Source of the DNA: Glutinoglossum americanum
Taxonomy: Eukaryota; Ascomycota; Geoglossomycetes; Geoglossales; Geoglossaceae
Assembly (NCBI GenBank): GCA_020080175.1
Contig: JAGHQL010000101.1
Location: 1 to 64,000, forward strand
Direction: 5' to 3'
Length of the DNA stretch: 64,000 bases
This document shows positions 1 through 58,172 of the stretch, piece after piece. The notes under the pieces are model-generated. The model did no database searches. It was not told the origin of the DNA and saw only the letters and a list, made by a program, of their open reading frames with translations. The position numbers were made by a program, and so were the translations under genes. Positions within the stretch are counted from its first letter, which is position 1, and every line of letters starts with the position of its first letter.

Positions 1-1050
1 GCCCTCGAGCGTCTGGAGCGCTGCTCCTGTGGCCGGGTCCCACAGCCTGACGGTGTGGTCGCCCGATGCCGATGCCAGCTGCTTACCATCCGGCGAGAAG
101 GCCACGGCGCTGACCCAACCCGAATGGCCCTCGAGCTTCTGGAGCGCTGCTCCTGTGGCCGGGTCCCACAGCCTGACGGCGCGGTCGTCCGATGCCGATG
201 CCAGCTGCTTACCGTCCGGCGAGAAGGCCACGGCGCTGACCCAACCCGAATGGCCCTCGAGCGTCTGGAGCGCTGCTCCTGTGGCCGGGTCCCACAGCCT
301 GACGGTGTGGTCGTCCGATGCCGATGCCAGCTGCTTACTGTCCGGCGAGAAGGCCATGGCGCTGACCTTACCTGAATGGCCCTCGAGCGTATAGAGCGCT
401 GCTCCTGTGGCCGGGTCCCACAGCCTGACGGTGTGGTCGCCCGATGCCGATGCCAGCTGCTTACCATCCGGCGAGAAGGCCACGGCGCTGACCCAACCCG
501 AATGGCCCTCGAGCTTCTGGAGCGCTGCTCCTGTGGCCGGGTCCCACAGCCTGACGGTGCAGTCGTCCGATGCCGATGCCAGCTGCTTACCGTCCGGCGA
601 GAAGGTCACGTCCTTGACCGTATACGAATGGCCCATGAGCCTCTGGAGCGCTGCTCCTGTGGCCAGGTCCCACAGCCTAGCGACAACGTCGCCCGATGTC
701 GACGCCAGCTGCCTACCGTCCGGCGAGAAGGCCACGGCGCTGACCCAACCCGAATGGGCCTTGAGCGTCTGGAGCGCTGCTCCTGTGGCCGGGTCCCACA
801 GCCTGACGGTGCTGTCACCCGATGCCGATGCCAGCTGCTTACCGTCCGGCGAGAAGGCCACGGCGCTGACCCAACCCGAATGGCCCTCGAGCGTCTGGAG
901 CGCTGCTCCTGTGGCCGGGTCCCACAGCCTGACGGTGCCGTCGTCCGATGCTGATGCCAGCTGCTTACCGTCCGGCGAGAAGGCCACGGTGCTGACCACA
1001 CCCGAATGGCCCTCGAGCGTCTGGAGCGCAGCGCCCCAATGGTTTTGCAG
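1..1050 (-). repeat. Tandem near-identical WD40 units (126 bp each)
   Basis: About eight 126-bp units encode the motif GHSGWVSAVAFSPDGKQLAS followed by a variable stretch and TVRLWDPATGAALQ. Units are almost identical in DNA. Differences gather at the residues after LEGHS (GW, GK, GV, YT) and in the S-x-D-x segment after LASA (G/D, then H, R, C, G, S). High internal conservation with a few hypervariable columns is the known mark of HET-E/HET-D repeats, where those columns face the ligand. Copy number is likely to vary between strains, and the array continues out of the window. Confidence 0.9.
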
Positions 1051-3388
1051 CTTCGATAGTCTCTGGACCCGTTGAGGCATCTGGTCCTTGAACTGTCTTC
1101 TAACCATACTCATCTCCGGTGCGAATATAAGAGCAGAGTAGTATATTTGGAACGGAGCTTGTTCAATCGCTAGCCGGTTATACAGAGCGAATCGCTTCGC
1201 ATCATGGACAAATGCGAATAAATGAGGACTTTCATCGGCCTCCATGATTAGTTAGCATAATCCCTAGCATATCCCGCGAGTCAACTTACGGCAATCATAG
1301 ACTCTAGCAAGGCTATCGCAAGAATCCCTTCCGATATCTTACACATCCAGCCCAAAGCTTCGAACCAGTATAGGAGTCTCTCTTTCAGAAATTTATAGAC
1401 TTGGCTGTTGTCATGTAGCTGGGCATCACCCTGATGAAGATGCTGGACCCAGTAGAGGCATGCATACTGAACCTCTGGAGAAAGGTATTGCTCGACCCGG
1501 CTGTTGTCGATATCGTTTGTAAGAACCCCGGGAGCGCGCACGCCGCGGACATCTCGCTCCAAGCCACAGACATCCCGTTCCAAAGTAGACATAACCCGTA
1601 TGCACCTATCGGCCAAGTTTCTATGCGTTTGCTTCTCGTCGATCCAAAATGGGTTTGTCTTGCGCTTCTCAGTGTCGAGGAGGAAGTCCCGGAACGACAG
1701 GTGGAACAATCGCACTGGGATATCCGGATTAGAAGGGATACTTAAGACCGAGTGGAGGAGATCTAATTGGCTGTCGACTTTCGGTTTAGAGATATCAAGT
1801 AGCTGAGCAAGGGATGCAGTAGAGAGCGGGCTGGCGAGAATGACGATCGAGCCGATAATTTCTCCGAACTCCCGTACTATATCGCGTCTCTCCGATGCAG
1901 TAAGCCCGACGAGTAGCTGGTTTAGGACTGGGAGATAAGTTGCGTCAAGCTTAGACTCCTGGCTTTTAGTCAGATATTTGAGGACCTTAGTAAGTTGCTC
2001 CTCTGGTTGGCCGCACCTCCGGTCCTTAATAAATCGACAGACGGTTGCGGCAAAAATGAATAAAGGGATGGCCATTTTGACCAGGTGTTGAATGTTAGTT
2101 TCACCTGGCCAACCTGGGGGTAATTGTCGGTCTTGTATGACAGATTTGTTGTAATCATCTCGGATTCTTGCCAGCTCGTATTCCAAGAACACGGAGATGT
2201 CATGCTCGATAATAGGTTTAGGAATCTGATGAAGAACCAGACCCTCATACCTGCCGCTTATATCCTCAAAGCCGAGGCGAATCGGTAACTCTGGCCTGCT
2301 CGTTACAAATAACTTGAGGCGTATCGATTTCAAGTATTTCACTTGTGAGAGAAGGTAAATTATGACCCTGACGTCCTCTTCCCGCTCGCACTCATCGAGG
2401 GCATCAACCACTATCACTATCTTCAGGAAATCCTGAGGATCACTGTGCACCTTGTCTAAGGGCCGTAAAATGAGCTTCTCGAACTGTTCTTTCAAGGTCT
2501 TTCCAGAGATAGCCGGGTCGGCCTCGATCGCATTTCGGACGTGCAGCGCTAAGGAAGGCAGCTTGTGGACGAGCTGAGCAGCAATCGTAGTGAAGAACAA
2601 CGTTGCATGGCCACGGTCACCTTCGCCCCTCTTGTAGAAAAAACTAGCGCCAAGCTCTCCCTTGTCGGCGAAGTTGTAGGCCACTGTGCGGGAGATTGTA
2701 GACTTGCCCGTACCAGCCATGCCATTCAGCCAGAATATACATTCGCTGTCTAGATCGCCGGCCCAATTGTCTATCTGGTGAAGAAGGTCAATCCGAGTGT
2801 CTGGATGGCATCTAGGGTCGTGTTCGTCAGCATGGCAGTCGAACGAGGCGCCTTCGGCGGTGCGGAGTTTGGCAAGAACGACCTCTTGATGGATGTCAAG
2901 AGTTAGTGCCCTGTAGGCAAAGTTGTTAGTTTTAGCTGCACGGGGAATGTACACGATGTCGCTTACGCCTGGTCAACGTGGAGGCCAAGAGATATCATCT
3001 CCCTACATCTTCCAAGGTCCTTTACAATGCCCTGAACCTCTGTGTTCTTGAAAGGCCACTTCAAGGCGCGAACTCCAAAACGCCTCATCACCCTGGGTCT
3101 TCGTCCAGGCTCCAACTTTGTCTCCAGGTCGACGAGCTGCGAGAAGCAGTCATCGACGCCATTACGCAAGGCCCTGGACGCCTCGAGTTTCGCACTATTC
3201 GGACCATTCAAGAGCGACTGTACCTGTTTGAGGATGTCCTTTAATCCGTCGGCTTCTCTTGAAAGGCGTGTGATGTCGTCTCTTGCATTCTTGACGTCGG
3301 TATAGTACTTTAAGCATAGCGACGAAACCTTTGCGGACAATTCGACAACCGCGATAACGCTTGCGGCAAGCGCAAGACCCTCCGCCAT
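1..3388 (-). CDS. NACHT-WD40 NLR (STAND) protein, 3' end outside window
   Basis: Fungal NOD-like receptor of the HET-E/NWD type; such proteins act in nonself recognition and heterokaryon incompatibility. Model on the minus strand: exons 3388-2967, 2910-1290 and 1239 to the window edge, with introns of 56 and 50 nt, phases consistent, 954 codons visible. Residues 1-140 are helical and look like the HeLo-like/fungal STAND N-terminal domain. The NACHT follows, with P-loop GMAGTGKST and Walker B VVDALDEC. The third exon opens with the NACHT-WD40 linker (HDAKRFALYNRLAIE, FAPEMSMVRRQFKDQ) and then WD40 units of 42 residues that continue past position 1. The gene looks intact. The start is the first ATG of the helical domain. 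The biological partner cannot be read from sequence. Confidence 0.9.
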
Positions 3389-4399
3389 CCCTTGTCGCTA
3401 AGGAGATCGACTAACGGAGGCGAAATAGCACTAGAGTGAGGGGTTGAGCAAGCTTTATCCTAAATCGTAAGGCTGCGGGCTTGGCTCACGCATAACATAG
3501 AAGCAGCTAGCCATAATAATGCTAGTGCGGCTAGGAGCGTCTTGCCCTCATCATCCAAGGCTCCAGTGGTGTCGAGGGCAAGTTAGGACACCGCTGAGTT
3601 TAAAAAGGCAGCATCGCAAGCTTCGTGACAGCAGCTCTGGGATCATTAGACCTTTCTACTCCTAATCACGAGGTAGTTGATTATTGCGCGCAACTTTTGA
3701 GGTAAGACTCTCGTAGCCAGGCCGAGTTTGCTCTTCTTGTTTACTCCCGCGACATGCTCCGGCCGTCCTAGGTGACGACCTCGTAGGTTTGCCGGATAGT
3801 TGGTTTACCCTGGGACACGAGCGGTGCGAAGTCTTGTAGGATAGGAAGCATAGAATTATATTAATTAAATTATCACGAGAGAGCGGTCCTAGAGGTTCTT
3901 AAGCTCGAATTTGAGAGACGCTAACAACAAGGTGATTGAATGCGGGATGCAACACCATTCCGCCAAAGCAATGGATCCGAATACTAGCATAGATTCTTCC
4001 AGATCTGCACACTTGCAGTCGTAACTAAGAATGCTTGCAGCCACTCCAATGCGTTCATCCCAACAGTTTAACGCTACGTCTCTGGCGCAAGCTTAGGGTG
4101 AGCATCACCTCGCCCACTATTTATGTAAGAGCGGCGCCGACTGGGTGTGCTCTCCTGCAAAGACGTGTGTTTCCACCCAGTAAACTGTTTTTTGCTCACG
4201 GTGAATTACGGCTTTGTATGTTGAAAATATTCCACCTAGAACAACTCTACATGACTAAGGAGTTTCCAGCCAGGTCGCCGTACCCTCTTTCCGAGGACCG
4301 CTACCTGCCCCGTCATGGCATAATCTCAATACAGGCCACTGCGCAACCTTAGCCCTCTCGGCTCCCCTCCTTCAGCCTTTCTAGCGATTGGACTCATCC
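3389..4399. other. Intergenic, no gene seen
   Basis: Upstream region of the NACHT-WD40 gene (minus) and of the decayed NACHT-ankyrin gene (plus). The short open frames here have no recognisable motif or splice partner. It may hold promoters for both, but no specific site can be supported. Confidence 0.5.
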
Positions 4400-5986
4400 A
4401 TGGGCGAGGCTATTGGAGTAGCAGACAGTGCTGTCGGTATTATCTCGCTCGGCATAGAGACAGAATAAGGGATTCTATGGTACCATAGAGCTTGGAAAGA
4501 TCAAGATGGCGATATCTCAAGGATGTATGCATTGCTTGGTAACCTGACCGAAATTCTGGAGGTCCTGTCGGTGGCTATCGCGCCATCCGCCGCATTTGGT
4601 AAGAGCGTGAAGGTCAGTGCGGAAAATGGCATCAATACTTTTCGGGGAACTCGAGAAGCTCGAATATGAACTAGAAAAAAGTAAAGGACACAGAACTCAA
4701 GCCAGGAACGCGGTCCACAATTCTAGGTCAGGTACGGAAGGCATATCACCATTAAGACCGAGAAACTCGAAAGATAGTTGATCGGCTATCACCATTGAAT
4801 TCTTGGCTAAAGCAGGCGGATATCTCTAATCAAAGGCAAACTGGCACTGGGCAATGGCTGTTGGACGATCCAATCTTTCTTGAATGGGCCTTTGGTGCTG
4901 GGAATGAGTGCGTGAGCCGTGCTCTGACAAGAGTTGTGTAAGACGACCACTAAATAAGCATCAGCCGGGGTTGGCAAGACTGCCCTTACATAAGTGGAAT
5001 CTTCATATAAAATCATATCGATAGTTGGACAGCTGTAGTCGAATTTCTCGAAAAAAGACTTGCCGATTCCGAACATCGGGTGAGCATTCATTTATTGCAA
5101 TTATAAAGAGAGGCTGTCACAGAAAGCCGAATACTTTGCTGGTACAATTTGTTAGGCAATTAGCGGAACAAAAATCAGCCATCACTGACGAAGTGCGCGG
5201 ACTACATAAAAAGCCGCCGTGGAAAAGGGGTGAGGCTTAGCTATGCAGAGTATTTGGGACTGCTTCAATCTCTAGCCAAGAGATGCTCTGAGGTGTACAT
5301 TATTACCGATGCGTTGGATGAATGCATAGACAAGTATGGAGAGTCTATTTTGAGCGGTTTCCTCACCAAATTAAAGGCTTCCCTCCCGAATCCGCATCTT
5401 CTTTATATGTCAAGACATACCAGTACCACCAGAGGAAGCTTAGCGGACCCGACTCATCAAAATCCGCGCAAGCAATACAGCCATCAAGCCCTACGTCCGA
5501 GAGCAAACTAAACCAAAAGATCGTCTGCCCGGATTTTATGGAGAGAATGCCGCCCCCCAAAACGAGGTTCCGGAAGCAGTTGGATTAAAAAATCCGAGGA
5601 AATGCAAGGCTCGCCATACCCCTACTACCCCGTCCCGCGTAGAAACCCGACTTATCTACTGTACATGTTTCCTGCCGCTCAGCTCCATGTCGAACCCCTA
5701 GCCGAGAAGCAAAAATCCTAGAGCTGTTCCAAAGGCCTTACATAAATCGCCAGAGAGGCCAGACGGTATTCATCACGGAAGCCATGGGGAGGGTCGAGGC
5801 TTGCCTTGCGGCTTTTATCGTGGATGGTATGTGCTGTTAGGCCTCTCCAGCTCACGGGAATTCAGCATGCCGTGGCTGTTAATGACATCGAGCCTGGAGA
5901 CCGGCCCGTTTCAAAGGGTTGTTTGGCATCTTGGCGCATCATCATCAACACTTGTGCAGGGATGATAGAAGTTGATGGAGAAGGTA
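4400..5986 (+). pseudogene. NACHT-ankyrin NLR pseudogene, 5' half
   Basis: Decayed plus-strand NLR gene. The ATG at 4400 opens an N-terminal helical domain (AIGVADSAVGIISLGI, then WYHRAWKDQDGDIS) with a stop after about 22 codons. Further on, in shifting frames, come the pre-NACHT motif WLLDDPIFLEWAFGAGNEC (about 4855-4915), a P-loop remnant GVGKTAL, the Walker B block VYIITDALDEC (about 5295-5330), a conserved post-NACHT stretch (YVREQ, GFYGENAAPQNEVPEAV, about 5485-5580) and a winged-helix-like block ending INTCAGMIEVDGEG at about 5984. Stops and frameshifts are scattered. The coding relic stops exactly at the TA where the TIR element begins and resumes at 10266. Confidence 0.85.
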
Positions 5987-6027
5987 CAAGGCTGTCGGCC
6001 GCCCTCCCCGCGAGCGCGGGCGAGGTG
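5987..6027 (+). repeat. Left terminal inverted repeat of the NLR-bearing element
   Basis: Starts CAAGGC directly after the TA at 5985-5986 and pairs with the reverse complement of 10229-10265. The shared core is CCTCCCCGC followed by AGCGC one base later. Seven mismatches and a 4-nt insertion in this copy point to an insertion that is not recent. Confidence 0.75.
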
Positions 6028-6231
6028 TCAGTCGCCCTTGCCAGTGGCAAAGATAAGACGGCTAGCGAAACATTCTAGAAGATACACCTCTTGCAATATG
6101 AATGTTTACGGTCCCCACACCCCTATGAAACAGAGAATATAAAGAAATAACATAAACTTATCAGACTGTGTATTAGAGAATAGCCGATATTTTGCGTCTC
6201 GTATCTACTACTTCCCAAGCTATCACTAAAG

Positions 6232-9200
6232 CTACATTTCCCGCATCATAGAAGAGTAATCCTTAGAGCATGCGAGAGTAGTAGGATGTTCTGCGCCAAG
6301 TACCCGTTTGTATCCATTGCATGCCCTCTGGTATAGCTCTGAAGCAGCTTCATACTTCCGCTGTTGATGAAGAAGGAAAGCCAGACAGTATACGCTGGTG
6401 AGCGTGTGCGGGTGTTCTGGCCCTAACACCTTCTCATATCCTTTCAGCGCCCGCCGGTACATCACTTCGGCCTCTTCACACTTGCCCTGGCTCCCCAACA
6501 CCGAGCCAAGGTCGTTGACGCTGGTGAGCGTGGACGGGTGTTTTGGCCCTAGCACCTTCTCATATCCTTTCAGCGCCCGCAGGTGCATCGCTTCGGCCTC
6601 TTCACACTTGCCCTGGCTCCCCAGCACCGAGCCAAGGTTGCTGACGCTGGCGAGCGTGGACGGGTGTTCTGGCCCTAGCACCTTCTCTTTTCCTTTCAGC
6701 GCCCGCCGGTACATCGCTTCGGCCTCTTCATACTTGCCCTGGCTCTCCAACACCGAACCAAGGTTGTTGATGCTGGTGAGCGTGCCCGGGTGTTCTGGCC
6801 CTAGCACCTTCTCTTTTCCTTTCAGCGCCCGCCGGTGCATCGCTTCGGCCTCTTCATACTTGCCCTGGCTCCCCAACACCAAGCCAAGGTTGTTGACGCT
6901 GGTGAGCGTGTGCGGGTGTTCTGGCCCTAGCACCTTCTCATACCCTTTCAGCGCCCATCGGTGCATCGCTTCGGCCTCTTCATGCTTGCCCTGTCTCTCT
7001 AACACCAAACCAAGGTTGTTGACGCTGGTGAGCGTGCCCGGGTGTTCTGGCCCTAGCACCTTCTCTCTTCCTTTCAGCGCCCGCCGGTGCATCGCTTCAG
7101 CCTCTTCATACTTGCCCTGTCTCCCCAACACCGAGCCAAGGTTGCTGACGCTGGTGAGCGCGTCCGGGTGTTCTGGCCCTAGCACCTTCTCATATCCTTT
7201 TAGCGCCCGCCGGTGCATGGCTTCGGCCTCTTCATACTTGCCCTGGCTCTCCAACACCAAGCCAAGGTCGCCGACGCTGGCGAGTGTTGATGGGTGTTCT
7301 GATCCTAGCACCTTCTCTCTTGCTTCTACTGATATTCGAACAACTTTCTCCGCGGTTTTGTACTCGCCTCTAAGGTATAGGTACCAGCCTGTGCTGGAAG
7401 CAATCTTTGCCTGATTTAGCACATCCTCCTCATCTCCTGTTACATGGCTAATAACTTCTCTCGCGTGGGGAAGGAGTACTTGGCAGTCTGCCCATGCCTT
7501 ATAGTCCCCGCTAGGGAATGCCGCTGTTAGAACTTTTATTGACTCCTTTATCCATTTACTTAACTGCTCGTTCGCCTCGAGCCAACTTTTCACCGATAGC
7601 TGAACTAGACGGTGCATCTCGAACGACTGCTTTCCGGTCTCTGCCCGCACAAGGGAGAAGCTTAGCAGCGGCGCCAGAGCATCGTCAAAGTCTAATTGAC
7701 TGGTGTTGTTTTGCAGCAAGGATATCGGAACCCCCTGTCTATCGAACATGCTCATCAGCGCAAGCAAATCTGCAGCTGACTGCTCCGTCTTCTGGATCTG
7801 GGTGAACGAGATCTGCAACGTCGCGATAACCGCATGCCGTATGCTGTGGTCTCGCCGAAGGTCTTCTAAAGCCTTCTTGCCTAGGAGACGCACCTGATTT
7901 GCCTCGCTCTTGCGGAACAGCTCAAGGTAGTCCGACATGGTTGTCACAGGTGCTCTTGTATCGATGTACGCCGCGGCGTGGGTAATTGCAAGAGGTATGT
8001 GCTCTAGAGCCTGGACAAGCGCCCTCGCATCAGTTTTGCTGGACTCGCTAAATGGCACTCTGGTGTTGAGCAGCGCTAGCGCGTCCTCTTCATCCATCGG
8101 CTCCACCTGGACGATGCTACCGCATGTCCCCACGAGATTAATCGCTGCAATTCTGTTCCTTGAGGTGATGAGGATCATTCCATTCGGCGTTTGAGGGAGG
8201 AAGCTTTCGAGCGGCCTCGTGCGGCTTGTGATGTCGCCTATCTGCGCAGTGCCAGCGTTATCTTCGAAGAAAACGCTATCGTCGTCGGCATTATCGAGTA
8301 TCATAAGCCACTGCCCATTCCTCCTATCTGATAGCCACGCACATACTAGTTGCAAGATGTCAGCCTTTGGATCTTCTCGCCCGGGAATTGGAATTTTGTC
8401 GGCAATGTTTCTATATCCTTGCTCAAATCTGGTAAGATTGCTTGCATGTGTCCAGACCACTAGGGTCTGCGGCTCCACTTGTTGAATTCTATACGCATAC
8501 TCGATTGCGATCTGCGACTTCCTAGAGACGTGTCAGAACGCCATCTAAAAGGATGCCGCGGACGGTATTTACCCTATGCCTCCCAGCCCGACAAGAGCTA
8601 TGCGGGTGTGGTTCCGCGAGGCTGCCTGTCTACGTTTCTCGCTAATCTTTGCGATGATATCCCCTCGGCCAACGAAGAAGTCGTCCCTCGAAAAGGGGAC
8701 CATGAACAGTGCATCAGGCGCTAGCAAGAGTAGATTCATAAGCGTTCTATACCAAGTACTTGATAATCTACTTTACGTACAGGAAACGTCCGCAGGCCTA
8801 GCGGGTGATGTCCCTTTACCGCCCAGCTCCTGTCGAACAAAGCCCTTAAGAACACCAGAGATGGCGCGGTAGCCATGCTCGTCTTTACTGCAGCATCTGG
8901 CCATCTGCATATGATTTGCATCGATACTTTCGACAGTCTCTAACTCCCTTGGAAGATCGAGCTTTGAGGAGAAGTCATCCACAACCTTGAATTATTAGTC
9001 GTTGCTTAAAAGAAAGCGAAATATGTGGTGTTGCTGGGGAGCATACTTTTCCATCTAGTCCCTTCATGCCGGCAATCCCCTTTGCCTCCTGAAAGGAATG
9101 AATCTTCATTCCGCCCTCAAACACGAGATTCTTAAAATTCTCATGGATATTATCCAGTACCTCACTGTTCACTTCCAGCGTTTCTAGTATCTTGTTTGCG

Positions 9201-10007
9201 TCTTGGAGGGCGACGCGAGCGAGATTTGCCGCAATTTGGCCCCAGCCAGCATACATGCTCCCTCGATGTGGCGTTCCAAGAAAAACGATAAGCTTCGTCC
9301 GTTCGCGGCATCTCTTCGATCTGTGTATGGCCTGCGACGACAAGTAAGCACGGTTCTCCCTTGAATCACGGAATGCCGAGGCAAGAATACATCTTTCACA
9401 ATTATGCCACCGAGACTATGCGCCACGAACACGATTGGCTTCTGTAAATTGGTCAGGATAACTGCGCTGCTTTGAAGTGCCAAGCGATTGGGGTATTACC
9501 TCATCCTCGATATCCCTCTCGAGTCTAACTTCCAAATCCCGGCCATGCTGTGATATGCTGTTCCTGCTGTTTGCCTGAAATAAGCCTCCAATCACATCTG
9601 CATTGTACCCGTACGTCCATATCCTAGCCTGGGGGATATCAGGCGCGAGGTATTGTTCCGGCCAGAAGATTTTTGATGAATAATTAGAGGCCTGCGACTG
9701 ATCCGTACCTGTTGGCGGAGACGCGCCGGCTTGCGGCTTGAAAAACGACTTGAAAAGGAACTTGGGGCTTTTGTGCTTCTTGGTCTCGCCGATGCCGTGT
9801 GCACTGCTCGACCCGCTGCTCGTGGCCGGCGCGGTTTCCCAGGTTCCCCGTGGGTGTCCTCGAAGACCATGAACGAATATTACACTAAGCAAGTCAGTAA
9901 ACGGCTCCGTAGCGTCTAAAAGCGAGGTCTAACTTCAAGCTGAACTGGTCATCGCTGCCGTTCCCACCTGACAGCCTCGTGAACCCCTCTCGGTGGACGT
10001 TCGCCAT
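6232..10007 (-). CDS. Lipase-like/NB-ARC/TPR NLR protein
   Basis: Seven-exon model, 1,132 aa: 10007-9934, 9884-9500, 9441-9391, 9331-9047, 8985-8820, 8720-8573, 8521-6232; all introns are GT-AG (49-99 nt). The N-terminal alpha/beta hydrolase (DUF676/lipase-like) shows VIFVHGLRGHPRGTWE, nucleophile motif VAHSLGG, FLGTPHRGS and a late DANHMQMA that could supply the catalytic His. The NB-ARC follows with P-loop GLGGIGKS (split by an intron), LMILDNADD and ITSRNR. Nine kinesin-light-chain-type TPR units of 42 residues end the protein. This domain order is known for fungal NLRs with patatin/lipase-like effectors. Every exon looks intact, unlike the NLR it sits in. It almost fills the TIR element that carries it. 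Confidence 0.88.
6265..7400 (-). repeat. Tandem near-identical TPR units (126 bp each)
   Basis: About nine 42-residue TPR units of the form QGKYEEAEAMHRRALKG-x-EKVLGPEHP-x-TL; units 2 to 8 are nearly identical in DNA. Variation sits mainly at the residue after ALKG (Y, R, K), the residue after EHP (D, G, H, S), the LG[LS]VL[EG] segment and S/N before LG. This matches the high-internal-conservation class of NLR repeats, in which a few surface columns diversify. Opposite-strand open frames here are shadows of the repeat. Confidence 0.85.
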
Positions 10008-10228
10008 ATAAGGTGTGGCATTAGGTAAGGATCAGCTCGTTTTAATGGGACAGAAAGGGTGCACTGCCGCGAGCCCGCTGTATTCAGAACGTCGGTAACA
10101 TGCATACACCTCGAAACGGAAGACTCGAGGAGTCGTCATTGTAGACACGCGGGGTTTGGAAGGCCTGCGGAGATGCGTTCAGCTGATATCCGATTCATTT
10201 TTCCCCACGCCTGATTGGATGCTTTCTG
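10008..10228 (-). promoter_or_regulatory. Putative promoter of the carried NLR gene, inside the element
   Basis: About 220 bp lies between the proposed start codon of the lipase-NB-ARC-TPR gene and the right inverted repeat. If the gene is expressed, its core promoter probably travels with the element. No TATA box or known factor site stands out, so this is inferred from position only. Confidence 0.35.
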
Positions 10229-10265
10229 CAATTTGCCTGCGCTAGCGGGGAGGATGGCCGCCTTG
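10229..10265 (-). repeat. Right terminal inverted repeat of the NLR-bearing element
   Basis: Ends GCCTTG directly before TA at 10266-10267. It is the inverted counterpart of 5987-6027 with seven mismatches and a 4-nt gap over about 37 aligned bases. Confidence 0.75.
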
Positions 10266-10857
10266 TAATATCGTTCGCTTGGTTCATCCGATACACAAGA
10301 ATACTTTGAGCGAAGCGGATCCGTTTATTTTCCCCATGCGCAACGGAACACTGGAGTAACATGTCTCAAATATCTATCGCTCGGCGTGCTTGATGAGGGT
10401 TATTGTCCCACTAGTGAATTATACGAACACCGATTGAAGGCAAACCCACTACTTGATCACGCCGCTCGAAACTGGGGAGCCATATCCGTGAAGAGAGTAA
10501 ACAGACTGTCCAGGATCTGGCTTCCAAGTTTCTGCTAGACGACTTTAAAGTGTCAAGCTCAAGCCAAGTCTTACTAATGGGGAAGTATAGGTATCCTAGG
10601 TATTTGTCGGCAGGCTCCCAAAAATTTTCAAGGCGTACATTATGTAGCCTATTTTGGGTTAAGAGACTCGGGTTCTAAGGACGGCCACGGCAAGACTCCA
10701 CTGTCGTGGGCGGCCAAGAATGGCCACGAGGCGGTCGTGAAGCTACTGCTCGCGAAGGACAGCGTCGACCCGGATTCCAAGGAGAGCCACGACCAGACTC
10801 CGCTGTCGTGGGCGGCCGAGAAAGGCCACCAGGCGGTGGTGAAGCTGCTAGAGCCAA
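10266..10857 (+). pseudogene. NACHT-ankyrin NLR pseudogene, 3' half with ankyrin repeats
   Basis: Continuation of the pseudogene cut at 5986. It resumes with NIVRLVH, then in shifted frames QEYFERSGSVYFPHAQRN, KYLSLGVLDEGYCP and the signature NPLLDHAARNWG (about 10440-10480) that precedes ankyrin arrays in this family. The block GVHYVAYFGLRDSG leads into two clear ankyrin units (10680-10852), both with TPLSWAA and GH-x-AVVKLL and nearly identical in DNA. After the second unit the similarity ends abruptly, so the gene is also truncated at its 3' end. Confidence 0.82.
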
Positions 10858-21513: not shown

Positions 21514-23972
21514 TTCCTTACTCTTTTTAGCTTTCTTTAGCCTTTCCTTTTTTCGGCGGTCTCGACGGTCGGCGGCTAGTCGCGCGGCGGGCAGTTGATG
21601 TTGTTGTTTGTGTCCGCCTCCTTATTTTTGGATTTTAATAAATTTCTCTTCTTCTCCGCAGAACCGGTTTTAACTTTTTTTTTTATTAAGTGGGGTCGGG
21701 AATTGGCGTTTGGATAGGCTGGTCGATAGGAGGTGGTTTTTTTTGGGTTGTTTTGTTGACTCTTCCGATCATGTTAGTTTGGTTTGGTTACATTGTGACG
21801 GAACTATGGGGGGACAAGGCGGGGGGTAGCGCGAAGGGTGATTGCATTACCAGACAGAGAGATCGCAGACCAGGGATGACAGGTGGGTGACTAGATGGAC
21901 GAACGGAGAGACGAGGGAATAGGTGAAGGGTGGCGTCGGTGGCTAGGACAAGAAAAGTGAAAATGCTTCTTGGCTCGATGATCGATGAGTCCAACTTCGT
22001 TTGGTAGACTGTTGCGGTGCAACGGGTGGAAATAGCGGAAGAAGGGCCAGGCGAGAGATATCTCTGAAGATTGATGGCGGCAAGTACTCCTTTTGGTGTG
22101 CAACAATCGAAATAAATTCGGTAAAATGAATATCCCAGCCGTGTCTGAAGAAGTGAAGACCAGAACCAAAAACCAGATGAAACCCACCGGGGGCCCCTTT
22201 ATATTCTCACCCCTCGACAGCCCTCCCTCCACTAGTTTTCTCGTTTTCCTTTTTCTTTCGAACCTGAGAGAGCTAGTATGGAGACTGCCGCAATGTCATA
22301 TTCTGAAAACCAGATATCAGAGCGTTTGTTGTGATGGATAGGCGGAGTGTACGATCGCCGGCTCTTCGGAAAGCCGTGCTGATCTCCACAAGGAATCAAA
22401 CTTCCTAAGTTTACGCACAAGTCCGCTACCTATCGAGTTGTTCTGGGGAAAGACTTCCCGCACCATCAGATGGTTGGAGGATGGACGATGGAGAGGGAAC
22501 ATGGATCTAACCGCCCATCGTAGAAGTAATTGGCGAGAGGAGCAAAAATGTGATCTGTTATTTTGGTGGTCCTTGGAGAGGGAGAAAAAGAGGATGAGCC
22601 AATGACCCTTGTAAAGGAATCAGGCAGATTTTAGATCATGTTTAATGGATGGGTAGCAAAGTCGATGACGACGATGAATGGACAGGGATCGAGCAATGAC
22701 AAACTGGACGAGAGACGGAGAATACCATGGCCGATTCGCCCATCTCGCGCACAGAACCAAAGGCCCCCAATCTGTGGATGCCTACAATTCCTGTGGATGC
22801 CAAGGGACCGAAGTCGTGCAGAGGGGCGTTGTGGTGAAGGCCGGCGTGAAGAGTAAGGGAAAGAGAGAAACGAGGGTAGCAGGATCAGGTCGTTCAGGCC
22901 AGCCAGAATCAGGGAAGTGAGAAAACCGGCCTCCCTAGGGGATATTTTGCTTCTCGTAGCAGAACGAGGGTTTTGGGAGTTCTCTGTCGGTGAGGCCCTA
23001 AGGCAAAGCCACGATCATGAATATCGAAGGCATTGGGTAAAACTTTCTACAACGGTGCGTGTGCTGCTAGGGTTTCTTGATTTCGCCATGTGGGCGGCCC
23101 AAAATGAGCTACGATTCTCAAAGTTTCGTAATTCTGTGCTGTTGTATCTCCGGGGGGGAAAACCACCCATCGTCGAGTTCTGCGGCTTTGGCCGTCGTCC
23201 CTTTAGGGTGTCACAGCGGCGAAGCTTGGTCTCCTGGGGCACGGAGGCGACGCGTACGATGGATGGTTGCTAGTTAGCGCGAGCACCCCGAAACCGGGTT
23301 CGGAAACGGGACACCCGTCCTTGACTTCACTTTCCATTCCCTTGCGCACACCAAAACCCTCTCCCTGGAATTGTAGACAGGGAGGCAGACGTTCCTGTAC
23401 ATGTTTCGTTTGTGCTGACGGCATTGCCGGCGGTATTGCAACATCCAAAGCCGCCTCTCTCTCGCGGGATGGGTGGTTGTAAGTGTGGATGAGAGGGGGG
23501 CGAGGGACTCGGCGGTGCGCGGATCGCGGGAGTCTGAATGCAGGCTGCCGCTCGGGTTCAAATCTAGTTGGTGGTGTGTGTCGCTCTTGCTCAGCTCCGG
23601 ATAATCATGTGTTGCCAGAAAGCTCGGACACTCCTCCCCGTTTCCAAGCGAAAGTACGCAAATGAACAACCGGCTGAGGGGGACCATCACAAGATGGAGC
23701 AGTGATCCGAACCTAATCACCGTCTGTGGAACTCCTGATCAGTAATTCGAAACATACCGAGTTCTTGCGGTCCCTATGTACCACCGAGGTAAACTTGGAT
23801 ACGTTAGGATCAAAGAGGTCTTCGGCAGAACGTGCCATCGAGAGTCATCGTAAGCAAGCACAGCAAATGCAGAGGAGGTAGTCACGTCAGTAAACCAAAA
23901 GCGTACGGTCATGGCGATCTTGCTTTATTTTTCACGCTAGGTTACCTGTTCGAAGATATAAACGATCAATAA
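21514..23972. other. 2.5-kb interval without a supported gene
   Basis: Lies between the small Cys-rich gene and the 3' end of nop4. It contains a T-rich tract near 21675-21685 and 21734-21745, and several open frames of 60-150 codons with no motif or splice structure. A tRNA B-box-like GGTTCAAATCT at about 23556 lacks a matching A box and cloverleaf. It may hold a long regulatory region or an unrecognised non-coding transcript. Confidence 0.4.
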
Positions 23973-31775: not shown

Positions 31776-33245
31776 TTATTGCTTCTTGCTCTCCCAGCCT
31801 CCATCCACCGCCCAGTCGTCGCCATTCACACCATCGTTCTTGACAATACGCGGAACAGCATTGCCAAAACCCCAGACATCAGAGTTGCCTGCTTTGGATG
31901 TAGAGGGGTCTTTGGCGGGCCCGGTGCTCTCCACCTGCCTCTCTGGGCCACTACTCTCATTGCTGGCGTGATCACTACCGATTGCACCCTTTTTCTTCCC
32001 TTTTCTAGTACCAGGCACGGTATTCCATCCTCCATCGTTCATCTCATTAATGATCCTTAATTGCTCCTCCTCAGAAGGCAGATCTCGTTCCCAGTTGTCT
32101 AGAGGTGTGCCCTTTGCGGCGACTGCGAGAGAGGAACCTCCCGCGCGAGAGTTCTGGTTACTCTCAAATGTGTCCAGGTAGAGAATGTCACCAGTCTCCA
32201 ATGAAGCTTCTGACTCTGGTCTGCCGTTGACTAACTCCCCCGAGCTTGCCCAAACAGAGGTAACAAGAGACTTGGAAGCAAAGCCCATTCCATTTCCCAT
32301 CCCATTCTTGGCCGGGCGCCCTTCCGCTTCTCTAGCTGTGCGTCGCTGTTTTTCTAGAAGAATGCGGCGTTCATTCTCAGCTTCCTCACGCTCTGCTTTC
32401 TTTGCCTCATTTTTCTTGCGGTTCTGGCGTTGCTTTTTGGTCTCCTGGATTTGGGAGACTTGCTGCTTTGGCCTCTGGGTACGGGCAGGCTGCGTAGGTT
32501 CGGTAAGGCGAAGGACGGATGGGCCAGACGGCGGGGCCTCGAGCATGTCAGAAAGTCCAGCATCTTCGTAAGCTTCGCCCACGGGTCTGGCTTCCATGAA
32601 GGGCGATGCGACTGGCGAAAGGTCATCATCTGCATCTGCGCCGGTGGTGGATGACGTTGTGGAGGCATTGCGAGGGGCTGAACCAGCGGGTTCAGTAATG
32701 GACAGATGAGTTCTACCCCGAATTGCACCATTGACCTTTGTCTCTTCCTCCCGAACCCTTTTCTTGGCTAGATCCTTGACTGGCTTGTTTGATTTAAGTT
32801 CTGATAACATCTTTGCAAACTCCTTGTTGTCCAAATCCTCATCAACCCGGTCCTCACCATTCACGGGTCCCTTCTGTTTCTCTGAGTTGCTGTCCGTAGT
32901 CTCTACGGGCTTTATGGTGGACCCAACACCTGGCTTCTCCGTCTTGGCCTTTGTGCCTTTCCCTTTCTTTCCTTTGTCCTTCCTCAGTGCCGGAACCTTG
33001 GATGTTGCCGCCGTAAAGCCCTCAGCGAAGTCGCTCTCGCTGAATTCCTTTGTCGTGACGACACCATCTTTTCTACTCTTCGCCTTGCCCTCTTCGCGTT
33101 TCCTAGCCGGTTTATTCCCAGCCTCCACAGAAATAGAGGCTGCACGGGCTGTCTTTGATTTAGGTTTATTTTGTGTATTATAATAATACCATCCAGCACC
33201 AGTGCCGAGCACAACAAATGCAGCCCACGACTTCCATGGCTCCAT
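31776..33245 (-). CDS. N-terminally anchored, charged low-complexity protein
   Basis: Single-exon frame, 489 aa. Residues about 5-23 (KSWAAFVVLGTGAGWYYYN) form an N-terminal signal anchor. The rest is hydrophilic and predicted disordered, with Lys/Glu-rich blocks and a coiled-coil-like stretch at about 275-315 (KKQRQNRKKNEAKKAEREEA). Short conserved-looking Trp motifs occur near the C terminus (NDGGWNTVPG, SDVWGFGNAVPR, DDWAVDGGW). It probably sits on the cytosolic face of the ER or another membrane. I do not recognise a named family. Composition is even with neighbours and nothing suggests transfer. Confidence 0.8.
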   Translation of the reverse strand: MEPWKSWAAFVVLGTGAGWYYYNTQNKPKSKTARAASISVEAGNKPARKREEGKAKSRKDGVVTTKEFSESDFAEGFTAATSKVPALRKDKGKKGKGTKAKTEKPGVGSTIKPVETTDSNSEKQKGPVNGEDRVDEDLDNKEFAKMLSELKSNKPVKDLAKKRVREEETKVNGAIRGRTHLSITEPAGSAPRNASTTSSTTGADADDDLSPVASPFMEARPVGEAYEDAGLSDMLEAPPSGPSVLRLTEPTQPARTQRPKQQVSQIQETKKQRQNRKKNEAKKAEREEAENERRILLEKQRRTAREAEGRPAKNGMGNGMGFASKSLVTSVWASSGELVNGRPESEASLETGDILYLDTFESNQNSRAGGSSLAVAAKGTPLDNWERDLPSEEEQLRIINEMNDGGWNTVPGTRKGKKKGAIGSDHASNESSGPERQVESTGPAKDPSTSKAGNSDVWGFGNAVPRIVKNDGVNGDDWAVDGGWESKKQ

Positions 33246-48583: not shown

Positions 48584-49328
48584 CCAGCCTGAAAGCCTTC
48601 TAGGGCATGGTGATGAGAAGCTAATCTGGCATGAGCTTCGCCAATACGGAGTGCTACTGAGCAGAGATTTCGGTGGAGGGGCGTCTATGTTATAATGAGC
48701 GAGCAGTCCGCCATCATGATGGTAACGACGATAACGCTTGGCCAAGAGTGTCGCATCTTCTTGTGCTCACTATTTTCTTTAGGGCTCTTATGAAACACTA
48801 GGGTTTGGGAATACCCTTAATCGGTGATATCTCGTTTACATGCTGAAAGGAAAGTGGGGGTTTGCAATGGCGGAAAAGCGAGAGCCCCTAGATCCAACGA
48901 CAGATGAAAGTGGAAGGGCGTGCACCGTCTTTTGTGTGCATGAGAAAGCATGCAGGCTTCCTTGTTGGCATTGATAGCCGGGGAGTATGGGGGATATAAA
49001 AAAGGCGCATTTTGTGATCCTGTACACAGTCGATTTGAGCACTTGCTCGTTCAGACGAATGGAAGAACTTGATTCTATGTAATGGAGAGAGGGAATGGCG
49101 ATTGCGCTTCTCTGACACACAGCTCATTCCCTGTGAGGGAACGCTCTTCTAACCCGTTGAAGACCCTCTGGGACCACGGGCTGCTGCGTGCTGATGAGAT
49201 ATTGACTGGCACGTTCCCATTCACTGACTGGTTATGTTGCCCGCCAAGTGGTGGTCAGAAGAGTATGCATGTACTACCCCTCGTAGGGCTGAATGGATCA
49301 TGTCGATTTGGGGATTAGTGAAGGGCGG
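48584..49328. other. 3' flank of med19 up to the MULE
   Basis: No gene recognised. The last 9 bases before the MULE (GTCTGAGAT, 49329-49337) are its left target-site duplication. Confidence 0.5.
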
Positions 49329-49337
49329 GTCTGAGAT

Positions 49338-49446
49338 GGCTCCCACTAGGCGGACGGGTCCGTCCCAATGAGTCAGCACAATTCCGCTTAGTCAATGAAA
49401 AAATGCATCTAACACAGCAACCTCATATGTTAGAGCTACGCAATGG
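49338..49446 (+). repeat. MULE left TIR, 109 bp
   Basis: Begins GGCTCCCACTAGGCGGACGG and ends GCTACGCAATGG. It is the exact reverse complement of 59164-59272. The last 24 bases carry the final codons and TGA stop (49423-49425) of the transposase. Confidence 0.95.
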
Positions 49447-50226
49447 ACACACCCTAGCACCTCTTCTATGACCTACAGTATGACAGTCACTACATGTAGG
49501 AGGCTGCCGTGTTGCCTGTACCTCAACAACCTCGAATTGGCTAGGCTCATGCTTTGTACTTGACTTCGGGAGACCCTTCTGTGTAGTCTTACGCTTTTCT
49601 ATACACTGAGGCTCCAGGAGGTGAAGTGGAGCCCCATTACGTATTAAACGCCAATGTGAGTAGAAGTCATCAAGAAGAAAAGGCTGGCCTTCACGCATAG
49701 TTAGTATATGTACACAGGGCAGCCCGTATATATGTGTGAAGGTGCCAGTACATATAGATGATGCAGGGGGGTCCTTCCACTGTAGCTGCCGTTGTTCTTC
49801 AACCTTCCGAAAAGCCTCATATGAAACCCAGCCTTGTACAGCCCTATATAGCACCTTATCAAGCTCGAGGGGCATACGAATCTGTTGCTTCGCCTGATTT
49901 GACTGTAATTCAGAAAGTTGATTATTCAATGCGAGCCGAATCGCCTTCCATGCTTCGAATAGATCAAAGGTTGACCTCCGGAGGTATGATTTAAGGAGCG
50001 CGTGGATCTCTTCGATACGGGAAGTAGCTATATTGCCAAAATGGGTCCGTTGATGGACCCATGCAGCCACAAGCTTCTCCTTATATGGTAAAAGCCATGT
50101 TTTCTTAATATAATCAACCTGCTCGAGGTTTGTTGAGACATACTTCTTCTCAAACTCCTTAAGGCGCTCCTTGTATGTTTCTTCAACCTCCGAGTTTAAA
50201 ATTGAGAACCAAAAGCTGTAGAATTC
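49423..50226 (-). pseudogene. MULE transposase, C-terminal half
   Basis: Minus-strand continuation of the transposase begun at 59167. It opens with FYSFWFSILNSEVEETYKE and contains the conserved SRIEEIHALLKSYLRRSTFD segment, whose glutamate is the expected third acidic residue of the DDE site. Then come a SWIM-type zinc motif (CTGTFTHIYGLPCVHIL) and a C-terminal zinc knuckle (CSDCHTVGHRRGARVC). Apart from the LTR element the two halves are in frame and total 597 codons plus stop, so the gene was probably intact when it was split. Confidence 0.9.
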
Positions 50227-50698
50227 TGTCATGACCTGCAGTCGGTTACCCGGCGAGGCCATTTAGGCCTCCGCGGCCGGGTAACTAGCTCGGGTTACGC
50301 AAACGGCGACTCGCCTATATGGCTATATGGATTCCGCAAGCGTACATCCTTATTGCTTTATGACGTCTATTCCATTGTTGAATGCCCATCGTGTATATAA
50401 GCGGCTCGCTGGCCTCCCACTGGAGGTCAGCGATCAGTTCTTCTACATCTCCGGCTTACTAGAATCAAGTCTATTCCGTCTACTCTACATTCTAAATCGG
50501 GCCGACGTCAAGTCGCCCTGAACCATCGACCATTAAGTCCATCCATTAGTCCTCGTACATCTAGACATTACCTAGACGCAGACCAGTCGCCCAACCATCG
50601 TCATCGCTGCGGGGTGCGACGTCACACTGTTATCGAACCCTCTAGATCCCTCGACGTCGGAGTGCCTTCGTGTCGCCTTGGCATCGAGAGCTCTTACA
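50227..50698 (+). repeat. 5' LTR (472 bp)
   Basis: Starts TGTCATGACC and ends CTCTTACA. A TATATAA box at 50394-50400 places the expected transcript start near 50425-50432, defining U3 before it and R/U5 after it. Confidence 0.95.
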
Positions 50699-57700: not shown

Positions 57701-58172
57701 TGTCATGACCCGCAGTCGGTTACCCGGCGAGGCCATTTAGGCCTCCACGGCCGGGTAACTAGCTCGGGTTACGCAAACGGCGACTCGCCTATATGGCTAT
57801 ATGGATTCCGCAAGCGTACATCCTTATTGCTTTATGACGTCTGTTCCATTGTTGAATGCCTGTCGTGTATATAAGCGGCTCGCTGGCCTCCCGCTGGAGG
57901 TCAGCGATCAGTTCTTCTACATCTCCGGCTTACTAGAATCAAGTCTATTCCGTCTACTCTACATTCTAAATCGGGCCGACGTCAAGTCGCCCTGAACCAT
58001 CGACCATTAAGTCCATCCATTAGTCCTCGTACATCTAGACATTACCTAGACGCAGACCAGTCGCCCAACCATCGTCATCGCTGCGGGGTGCGACGTCACA
58101 CTGTTATCGAACCCCCTAGATCCCTCGACGTTGGAGTGCCTTCGTGTCGCCTTGGCATCGAGAGCTCTTACA
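57701..58172 (+). repeat. 3' LTR (472 bp)
   Basis: Same length and ends as the 5' LTR, about 98% identical to it. It is followed directly by AATTC, the second copy of the target duplication. Confidence 0.95.

What the first reader, a model, noticed from the sequence alone, without database searches (positions are those of the whole stretch)
5985..10267. A complete NLR gene carried on a TA-duplicating inverted-repeat element inside another NLR gene
Seen directly: a 4,279-bp segment has imperfect inverted ends opening CAAGGC, TA on both sides, and sits inside a decayed NACHT-ankyrin gene so that removing it rejoins the codons of V-D-G-E-G and N-I-V-R-L-V-H in frame. It holds one intact-looking seven-exon lipase/NB-ARC/TPR NLR gene (1,132 aa) and no transposase. 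TA duplication and inverted ends are known for Tc1/mariner-like transposons. Inference: an immune-type receptor gene may travel as the cargo of a small non-autonomous DNA transposon and has broken a different NLR by landing in it. This would help explain presence/absence variation of fungal NLRs. I know of giant Starship elements carrying NLRs, but not of this compact form.
Basis: partly seen in the sequence, partly recalled or inferred. Interest (0 to 1): 0.92.

Follow-up and report, generated by a model that had tools for sequence, protein, structure and literature searches.

The report
Mobile-looking cassettes carrying fungal immune-receptor genes
In a fungus related to earth tongues, a 4.3-kb piece of DNA carrying one complete immune-type receptor gene sits neatly inside another receptor gene, and its distinctive inverted end sequence also frames receptor genes of several other designs elsewhere in the genome, which may be a compact way to move and reshuffle such genes.

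Summary
Window 5987-10265 (4,279 bp) has inverted ends, TA on both sides, no recognised transposase, and one intact-looking seven-exon lipase/NB-ARC/TPR gene (1,131 aa). Joining the flanks over a single TA restores a winged-helix motif of a decayed NACHT-ankyrin gene.

The ends recur. A ~45-bp box (shortened in the window) gave 23, 34 and 23 matches in three overlapping pattern searches of this genome, 0 in each reversed control. Among known boxes, seven convergent pairs lie up to 6 kb apart (cut-off set afterwards). All seven frame NLR-type coding sequence, 5' part at one box and 3' part at the other: lipase-NB-ARC-TPR, SesA-...-TPR, NACHT-WD40 (two), decayed HET/WD40, PNP...ankyrin (two). 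So the window element looks like one of a family of NLR cassettes.

Against a simple Tc1/mariner reading: TA flanks 4 of 42 box ends; 29-30 of 42 have a recurrent 'arm' outside; no transposase sharing the ends was found; the host gene has other lesions, so 'broken by the insertion' is not shown. CA...TG ends plus TA also fit ESTA/EnSpm-like elements.

No relative's DNA was available, so strain-level empty sites are untested. Searches of the held library listed no description of such elements.

The parts
5987..10265 (-). Box-bounded NLR cassette (4,279 bp), gene on the minus strand
   Evidence: Inverted ends and TA flanks read directly; right end has a second copy on contig C180; 42 box ends aligned genome-wide, these two included
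5985..5986 (.). TA on the left side
   Evidence: VDGEG-NIVRLVH is read in one frame only with a single TA
10266..10267 (.). TA on the right side
5987..6021 (+). Left terminal inverted repeat, shortened box (3' side of the NLR gene)
10235..10265 (-). Right terminal inverted repeat, shortened box (5' side of the NLR gene)
9961..10260 (-). 5' subterminal region of the cassette, 83% identical to a stretch of contig C180 starting at 23134
9968..10007 (-). NLR exon 1 with the proposed start codon
   Evidence: N-terminus MANVHREGFTRLS shared with Geoglossum simile P0001
9500..9915 (-). NLR exon 2 (lipase/DUF676 region)
9391..9441 (-). NLR exon 3 (VFVAHSLGG lipase motif)
9047..9331 (-). NLR exon 4 (lipase region)
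8820..8985 (-). NLR exon 5
8573..8720 (-). NLR exon 6, into the P-loop; P0001 has 13 more residues at the exon 5/6 border
6232..8521 (-). NLR exon 7: rest of NB-ARC, DUF7779, TPR repeats, stop
6392..7317 (-). 126-bp tandem array (7.3 copies) coding for TPR repeats
4394..5984 (+). Left part of the decayed host NACHT-ankyrin-type gene (N-terminal region, NACHT/NPHP3_N remnant, first part of the winged helix)
10268..10850 (+). Right part of the host gene (rest of the winged helix, then ankyrin repeats)

Best explanation
The window holds one member of a genome-wide family of compact cassettes: an NLR-type gene between two inverted ~45-bp boxes whose outermost bases are (T)ACAAGG. SHOWN: the boxes recur, with 0 reversed-control matches; several lie convergently around genes of different NLR architectures; in the window the box-bounded unit sits inside coding sequence that rejoins when the unit and one TA are taken away. 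INFERRED: the box is a transposase recognition end, and the cassette moves by cut-and-paste DNA transposition driven in trans by an enzyme encoded elsewhere, inserting at TA in this case. Different NLR genes would come between the common ends by capture or by recombination between copies. In many copies the box is flanked by, or is the inner part of, a longer end ('arm'); the window copy appears to have moved with the box alone.
For: Ends align better than 2,000 of 2,000 shuffles and 5,000 of 5,000 random pairs, best random score 30 against 32. Right end has a second copy on C180; the aligned piece stops inside the box, and C180 has its own TACAAGG further out. Boxes: 23, 34, 23 matches in overlapping searches at up to 3 mismatches, control 0 each time. 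Seven of seven convergent pairs up to 6 kb (cut-off chosen after seeing them) frame NLR-type sequence: C4 4,279 bp lipase-NB-ARC-TPR; C267 4,285 bp, NACHT and WD40 in long ORFs, introns not modelled; C241 3,158 bp, SesA and DUF7779-TPR by Pfam, NB-ARC by 48% identity to the window gene; C268 4.6-4.8 kb, NACHT by Pfam, WD40 by eye; C158 4,487 bp decayed, HET E 5.7e-4 under the cut-off, WD40 by eye; C21 5.3 kb and C1 5.1 kb, PNP_UDP at one end (Pfam for C1; C21 by 79% DNA identity) and ankyrin at the other. Of 26 ends with 0.45-1.5 kb of inside sequence, 19 have NLR-type coding sequence inside, at least six of them by eye or DNA similarity only. One outside ORF tested at each of 12 ends: 0 of 12 with an NLR domain. 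The stretch GCGCAGGCAAAYTGCA next to the box is shared by the lipase cassette and two NACHT-WD40 cassettes. Host gene rejoins with one TA.
Against: TA flanks only 4 of 42 box ends (both window ends, C253:151512, C180), and the C180 one looks like a mutated arm end; no other pair has TA at both ends. At 29 of 42 ends (30 with one intermediate) the outside is a recurrent arm, so most copies may not end at the box. No transposase with these ends was found; the Plavaka model gave 0 hits, but its control was silent. Of the 26 ends, 4 show no recognised NLR in the inside sequence, one a CHAT gene, one a Tet_JBP gene, one (C180) only a homologue of the window's 5' region. Wider pairs are less clean: C43 (6.8 kb) has CHAT at one end and nothing recognised at the other, C1 (8.7 kb) nothing recognised at its read end, C253 (9.4 kb) an ankyrin 3' end and a WD40 3' end, so more than one gene. 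Box matches also occur unpaired or as same-orientation neighbours (C285, C43). Among 26 non-self loci of relatives of this NLR, a box was seen in 3, within limited flanks. No strain comparison was possible. The PF22939 match over the junction is below Pfam's cut-off. The middles of C21, C1 and C268 were not read.
Confidence: 0.64

Rival explanations
1. Long-end element (not exclusive of the best explanation): the true mobile unit is larger, arm (about 560-1,020 bp, outer terminus TA followed by A[C/T]NTCC) + box + NLR + box + arm, a DNA transposon with long inverted ends; the box is the inner part of its ends. The window copy is a derivative that used the inner ends.
For: 29-30 of 42 ends have an arm class outside, judged by eye on the last bases. 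Of 17 arm-1 matches, 12 lie within about 0.65 kb of a box, 12 of 12 with the same end towards it. TAA[C/T] stands at the outer terminus in 13 of 13 copies read. Contig C43 has arm 1 on both sides of its box cluster in inverted orientation (32637-33197 and 48967-49553, 80%).
Against: The window copy has no arms, yet the box-to-box unit interrupts coding sequence exactly. Three arm ends that differ from each other meet the box at the same base, which looks like a junction between units. No complete arm-to-arm element was read end to end, so TA duplication there is not shown either.
Confidence: 0.4
2. Cassette exchange: boxes (and arms) are recombination landmarks; NLR genes are swapped between pre-existing box pairs by gene conversion or ectopic recombination, without transposition of the box-bounded unit.
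For: Mixed combinations of arms and cargo at the same box junction; tandem boxes at C69 and C268.
Against: The window site is the middle of a coding gene with no box or arm seen in the flanks; exact rejoining needs insertion of the whole unit.
Confidence: 0.2
3. Ordinary duplication of NLR genes with their conserved flanks; the boxes are promoter or terminator sequence of one gene family.
For: NLR genes duplicate often (recalled); C267 and C268, and C1 and C21, carry similar genes of one class.
Against: The same box in opposite orientation lies at the 5' and the 3' side of genes whose recognised N- and C-terminal domains differ; the window unit interrupts another coding gene.
Confidence: 0.06
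4. A non-autonomous Tc1/mariner element.
For: TA at both window ends; 30 DDE_3 matches in the genome (candidates capped).
Against: TA at 4 of 42 box ends; none of the 30 DDE_3 matches is inside any of the seven box pairs; CA...TG ends with TA fit ESTA/EnSpm-like elements as well (PMC12730594, section 16).
Confidence: 0.12

Closest known systems
ESTA / EnSpm-like (CMCT) DNA transposons of fungi, PMC12730594 (abstract, sections 16, 22, 25 and search passages seen)
   Same: CMCT elements share 5'-CA...TG-3' termini in most cases; ESTA makes TA duplications and carries an accessory gene (TET/JBP). A Tet_JBP gene lies near box C43:42727 here.
   Different: No transposase recognised in the cassettes; the cargo is an NLR-type gene; most box ends are not TA-flanked. 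That study describes ESTA under Pucciniomycotina, whereas this is an ascomycete.
Starship giant transposons (listing and start of abstract seen, PMC12134995; NLR cargo recalled)
   Same: Fungal cargo-carrying mobile DNA, with NLR genes among the cargo (recalled)
   Different: Starships reach ~700 kb, with a tyrosine recombinase; the seven pairs here are 3-5 kb with inverted ends.
ToxhAT (start of abstracts seen, PMC6737239 and PMC12506042)
   Same: A cargo gene carried by a DNA transposon in an ascomycete
   Different: 14 kb and hAT-type (type recalled from the name); the cargo is not an immune receptor, and it is not known to me as a family with varied cargo.
Pack-MULEs and other gene-capturing non-autonomous elements (recalled)
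   Same: Non-autonomous inverted-ended elements carrying host genes
   Different: They usually carry fragments of arbitrary genes and make 9-11 bp duplications (recalled); here NLR-type genes of one functional class.
HNWD NLR family of Podospora anserina, het-d/het-e (PMC12222747, passages seen)
   Same: Fungal NLRs; the text says association with transposable elements can fragment assemblies at NLR places
   Different: A term search of that text found 'inverted repeat' and 'target site duplication' 0 times.

Membership tests
Fungal NLR (STAND) protein | N-terminal effector domain, NB-ARC/NACHT with P-loop, C-terminal repeats | tested here: met
   DUF676 E 2.2e-4 (21.2 bits, cut-off 20.3), NB-ARC E 3.4e-4 (20.4 bits, cut-off 23.5, so under it), TPR_12 E 1.2e-122; GLGGIGKS motif read
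TIR-bounded DNA transposon (non-autonomous) | Inverted terminal repeats shared by several copies | tested here: met
TIR-bounded DNA transposon (non-autonomous) | Target-site duplication in several copies | tested here: inconclusive
   TA on both sides in the window only; TA at 4 of 42 box ends; TA at 13 of 13 outer arm termini read
TIR-bounded DNA transposon (non-autonomous) | Empty site | tested here: inconclusive
   In-frame rejoining and a PF22939 match over the junction, below the Pfam cut-off; no strain with an empty site available
Tc1/mariner | TA duplication throughout the family | tested here: not met
   4 of 42 box ends; the outer arm termini do have TA
Tc1/mariner | Autonomous relative with the same ends and a DDE_3-type transposase | tested here: inconclusive
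   30 DDE_3 matches, none inside the seven box pairs; their own ends could not be read because the loci were not cut out
ESTA/EnSpm-like (CMCT) | 5'-CA...TG-3' termini with TA duplication | tested here: inconclusive
   Termini CAAGG...CCTTG; TA on both sides in the window only; definition
ESTA/EnSpm-like (CMCT) | RAG1-like transposase with C(2)C and H(3-4)H motifs | tested here: inconclusive
   No model for ESTA at hand; Plavaka PF18759 gave 0 hits with a silent control
Starship | Tyrosine-recombinase captain, giant size (recalled, and PMC12134995 listing) | tested here: not met
   The window unit is 4,279 bp filled by one NLR gene

The most novel reading that the evidence does not exclude
This fungus keeps a good part of its NLR repertoire, of about five architectures, in a dedicated mobile format: interchangeable single-gene cassettes with common ends that move as transposons, land in genes (other NLRs included) and swap cargo, so the ends work as a platform for moving and diversifying immune receptors.
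Probability: 0.38. Interest if true: 0.94.

Novelty: new variant of a known kind. Interest (0 to 1): 0.82.

Why it matters
Fungal NLR genes vary strongly between strains (recalled), and how they are gained and lost is largely open. A ~45-bp sequence that can be searched for in any assembly, and that frames NLR-type genes of different architecture, makes the question testable: compare strains for presence/absence of box-bounded cassettes, and look for the enzyme that recognises the box. If it holds, it is a compact route for mobilising immune receptors beside the giant Starships.

Tried and rejected
Left end as DNA query (211 bp): only itself, so the family became visible only through gapped and mismatch patterns. 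Pattern CAAGGC with free bases was uninformative. tRNA origin of the box (A-box-like look): ARAGORN found 0 genes in 13 loci. The arms as LTRs (TATA-like motif; two copies begin TG and end CA): rejected, since most copies read begin TAACGTCC and they flank in inverted orientation. Plavaka transposase: 0 hits, control silent. Tc1 partner: DDE_3 matches exist, none inside the seven box pairs, and their ends could not be read. One exact box pattern in genome contigs and viral contigs: 0 and 0. Literature: (held library only, judged by titles and starts of abstracts) listed no paper on compact inverted-ended elements carrying fungal NLR genes; one search asked for the organism and listed two metagenome papers. 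Subscription journals are mostly not held. Rows dropped: C85:42850 (layout unlike the box, taken as chance) and the inner tandem box at C69:2699 are not among the 42 ends. Two of the 42 (C51, C238) have outer halves unlike the box. I read no relative's DNA. On rechecking I lowered two odds slightly (best explanation 0.66 to 0.64, novel case 0.40 to 0.38): the 6-kb cut-off was set afterwards, the wider pairs are less clean, and the best random end pair scored 30.
Full report
CHECK OF THE OBSERVATION. The coordinates are right. TA stands at 5985-5986 and 10266-10267, CAAGGC begins at 5987, its complement ends at 10265, and 4,279 bp lie between. The top inverted repeat listed for the stretch is formed by its two ends. 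The alignment score of the two 60-bp ends (32) is not reached by 2,000 shuffles (highest 24) or 5,000 random pairs (highest 30). The gene on the minus strand splices into seven exons and 1,131 residues, with lipase-like DUF676, NB-ARC (20.4 bits, below the 23.5 cut-off), DUF7779 and TPR repeats. The model is supported by a Geoglossum simile protein of 1,137 aa, 85% identical over 99% of the query and 90% over the first 726 residues. The two differ at the first and fifth splice borders.

THE HOST GENE. Left of the element lie remnants of an NLR N-terminal region and a NACHT-type domain; right of it lie ankyrin repeats. With one TA the flanks read MIEVDGEG-NIVRLVH without interruption; with zero or two TAs they do not. 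The joined peptide aligns to the winged-helix model PF22939 over positions 11-77, while the left flank alone reaches only 39; both scores are under the model's cut-off. The host pieces lie in different frames, and a one-base frameshift follows VRLVH. So the gene is decayed, and it is not shown that this insertion killed it. Note also that TACAAGG...CCTTGTA is symmetrical: a TA duplication, and an insertion without duplication of an element starting ACAAGG, give the same rejoined sequence.

A FAMILY OF ENDS. The right end has a second copy, 83% identical over ~300 bp, on contig C180; the aligned piece stops inside the box, and C180 has its own TACAAGG further out. A gapped pattern then found the same end beside a WD40-repeat gene on contig C253. 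The fuller box gave 23 matches, the inner half 34 and a variant 23, each at up to three mismatches. These sets overlap; the reversed control gave 0 each time. The window copy lacks about 13-18 bp in the middle of the box at its two ends.

WHAT THE BOXES FRAME. Sorting the known boxes by contig gives seven convergent pairs within 6 kb, a cut-off I set after seeing them. All seven frame NLR-type coding sequence, with the 5' part at one box and the 3' part at the other. C4 (window): lipase-NB-ARC-TPR. C267: NACHT and WD40 in long ORFs, introns not modelled. C241: SesA, NB-ARC by similarity, DUF7779, TPR. C158: HET-like start (below cut-off) and WD40-like remains by eye, decayed. C268: NACHT start and, by eye, a WD40 end. 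C1 and C21: PNP_UDP start and ankyrin end. For C21 the PNP start rests on 79% DNA identity to C1. The middles of C21, C1 and C268 were not read. Three wider pairs are less clean: C43 (6.8 kb) has a CHAT gene at one end; C1 (8.7 kb) shows nothing recognised at its read end; C253 (9.4 kb) has an ankyrin 3' end at one box and a WD40 3' end at the other, so more than one gene.

CENSUS OF ENDS. Of 26 ends with 0.45-1.5 kb of inside sequence, 19 have NLR-type coding sequence inside. Two of these (C268:56027 and 56208) are tandem boxes before one gene. C157 (HET; Pfam found nothing), C194 (ankyrin), C21:18166 (PNP) and the WD40 ends of C268 and C253 were judged by eye or DNA similarity; C140, C268:34084 and C197 are under their Pfam cut-offs. 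One end has a CHAT gene, one a Tet_JBP gene, one (C180) only a homologue of the window's 5' region, and four nothing recognised (C134, C70, C1:35334, C43:33198). One outside ORF at each of 12 ends gave no NLR domain. The outside of C253:152020 does reach a WD40 gene, because the neighbouring unit lies 0.5 kb away.

WHAT IS NOT SETTLED. Outside the box, 29 of 42 ends (30 with one intermediate) have one of three recurrent flanks ending in ...GCCACCTCA...GTATATCTYRA or ...CCATCGCAA/CCATCATCA (classes assigned by eye on the last bases). The first extends ~560-620 bp ('arm 1'): 17 genome matches, 12 of them within about 0.65 kb of a box. Its far end reads TAA[C/T]NTCC in 13 of 13 copies read. This looks like a longer end of the same element family. 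Yet the window copy, which gives the cleanest insertion, ends at the box. The base before the box is A in 36 of 42 ends, and the last two are TA in 4 of 42; of these four, C180 looks like a mutated arm 1. I therefore do not claim TA duplication as a rule of the family.

MECHANISM. The anatomy (inverted ends, a cargo gene, no enzyme, exact interruption of coding sequence, many copies) points to transposition in trans of non-autonomous units. Cargo of different architectures between common ends points to replacement of the cargo. The enzyme is unknown. CA...TG ends with TA fit ESTA, an EnSpm-like group (PMC12730594; abstract, sections 16, 22, 25 and passages), as well as Tc1. Tc1-type DDE_3 matches are common in this genome (30), but none lies inside the seven pairs. 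A Plavaka search found nothing, with a silent control.

ORGANISM. A homoisocitrate dehydrogenase beside the C21 cassette is 99% identical to that of Glutinoglossum americanum (Geoglossomycetes). This rests on one gene only. No name Glutinoglossum appears among the 120 listed NLR matches (some rows carry no name). That may mean absence, or only missing annotation.

NOVELTY. Cargo-carrying fungal transposons are known. I found no description of compact inverted-ended cassettes that carry NLR genes of several architectures (search listings; held library only). I file it as a new variant of a known kind.

Noticed in passing
G000:C43:32637-33197(+) and 48967-49553(-); other copies listed: A ~560-620 bp 'arm' repeat with outer terminus TAA[C/T]NTCC, a TATA-like motif, and the end ...GCCACCTCA meeting the box; found on both sides of a box cluster in inverted orientation. 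Its nature (long end, separate element, or preferred target) is unresolved.
   Followed up: partly
L063 (C140) and L067 (C268) outside the box; L078, L081, L102: A retroelement-like ORF (zinc knuckle in the C268 copy, PF00098; the C140 copy is 80% identical DNA) begins close to the box at two loci. A short repeat CGTATGTATG... is inserted next to some boxes with the 11-13 bp outside the box repeated on both sides, as if retroelements target the box boundary.
   Followed up: partly
G000:C43:41230-41850 (L070): Tet_JBP dioxygenase ORF (PF12851, E 5.5e-9) about 0.9 kb inside a box; such genes ride on DNA transposons in other fungi (PMC12730594).
   Followed up: partly
G000:C43:38462-39719 (L059): CHAT-domain gene (PF12770, E 3.7e-34) ending beside a box: a possible non-NLR cargo of the immunity type.
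   Followed up: no
window 1-3400: A further NLR-like gene at the contig start on the minus strand: DNA similar to the NACHT part of the C267 cassette gene (ORF 1281-2972) and 126-bp repeats at 1-1029 similar to WD40 regions; the box scan of the window found boxes only at the two ends of the element.
   Followed up: no
window 50402-50698 and 57876-58172: Two similar ~300-bp copies 7.5 kb apart, 89-90% identical to the end of contig C180 and with relatives beside C253:142082; possibly repeats of another mobile element.
   Followed up: no
L056/L068 (C268:56001-56208), L071 (C69:2699-2813): Tandem boxes: two boxes in the same orientation about 181 and 72 bp apart, suggesting repeated insertion or recombination at the same end.
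   Followed up: no
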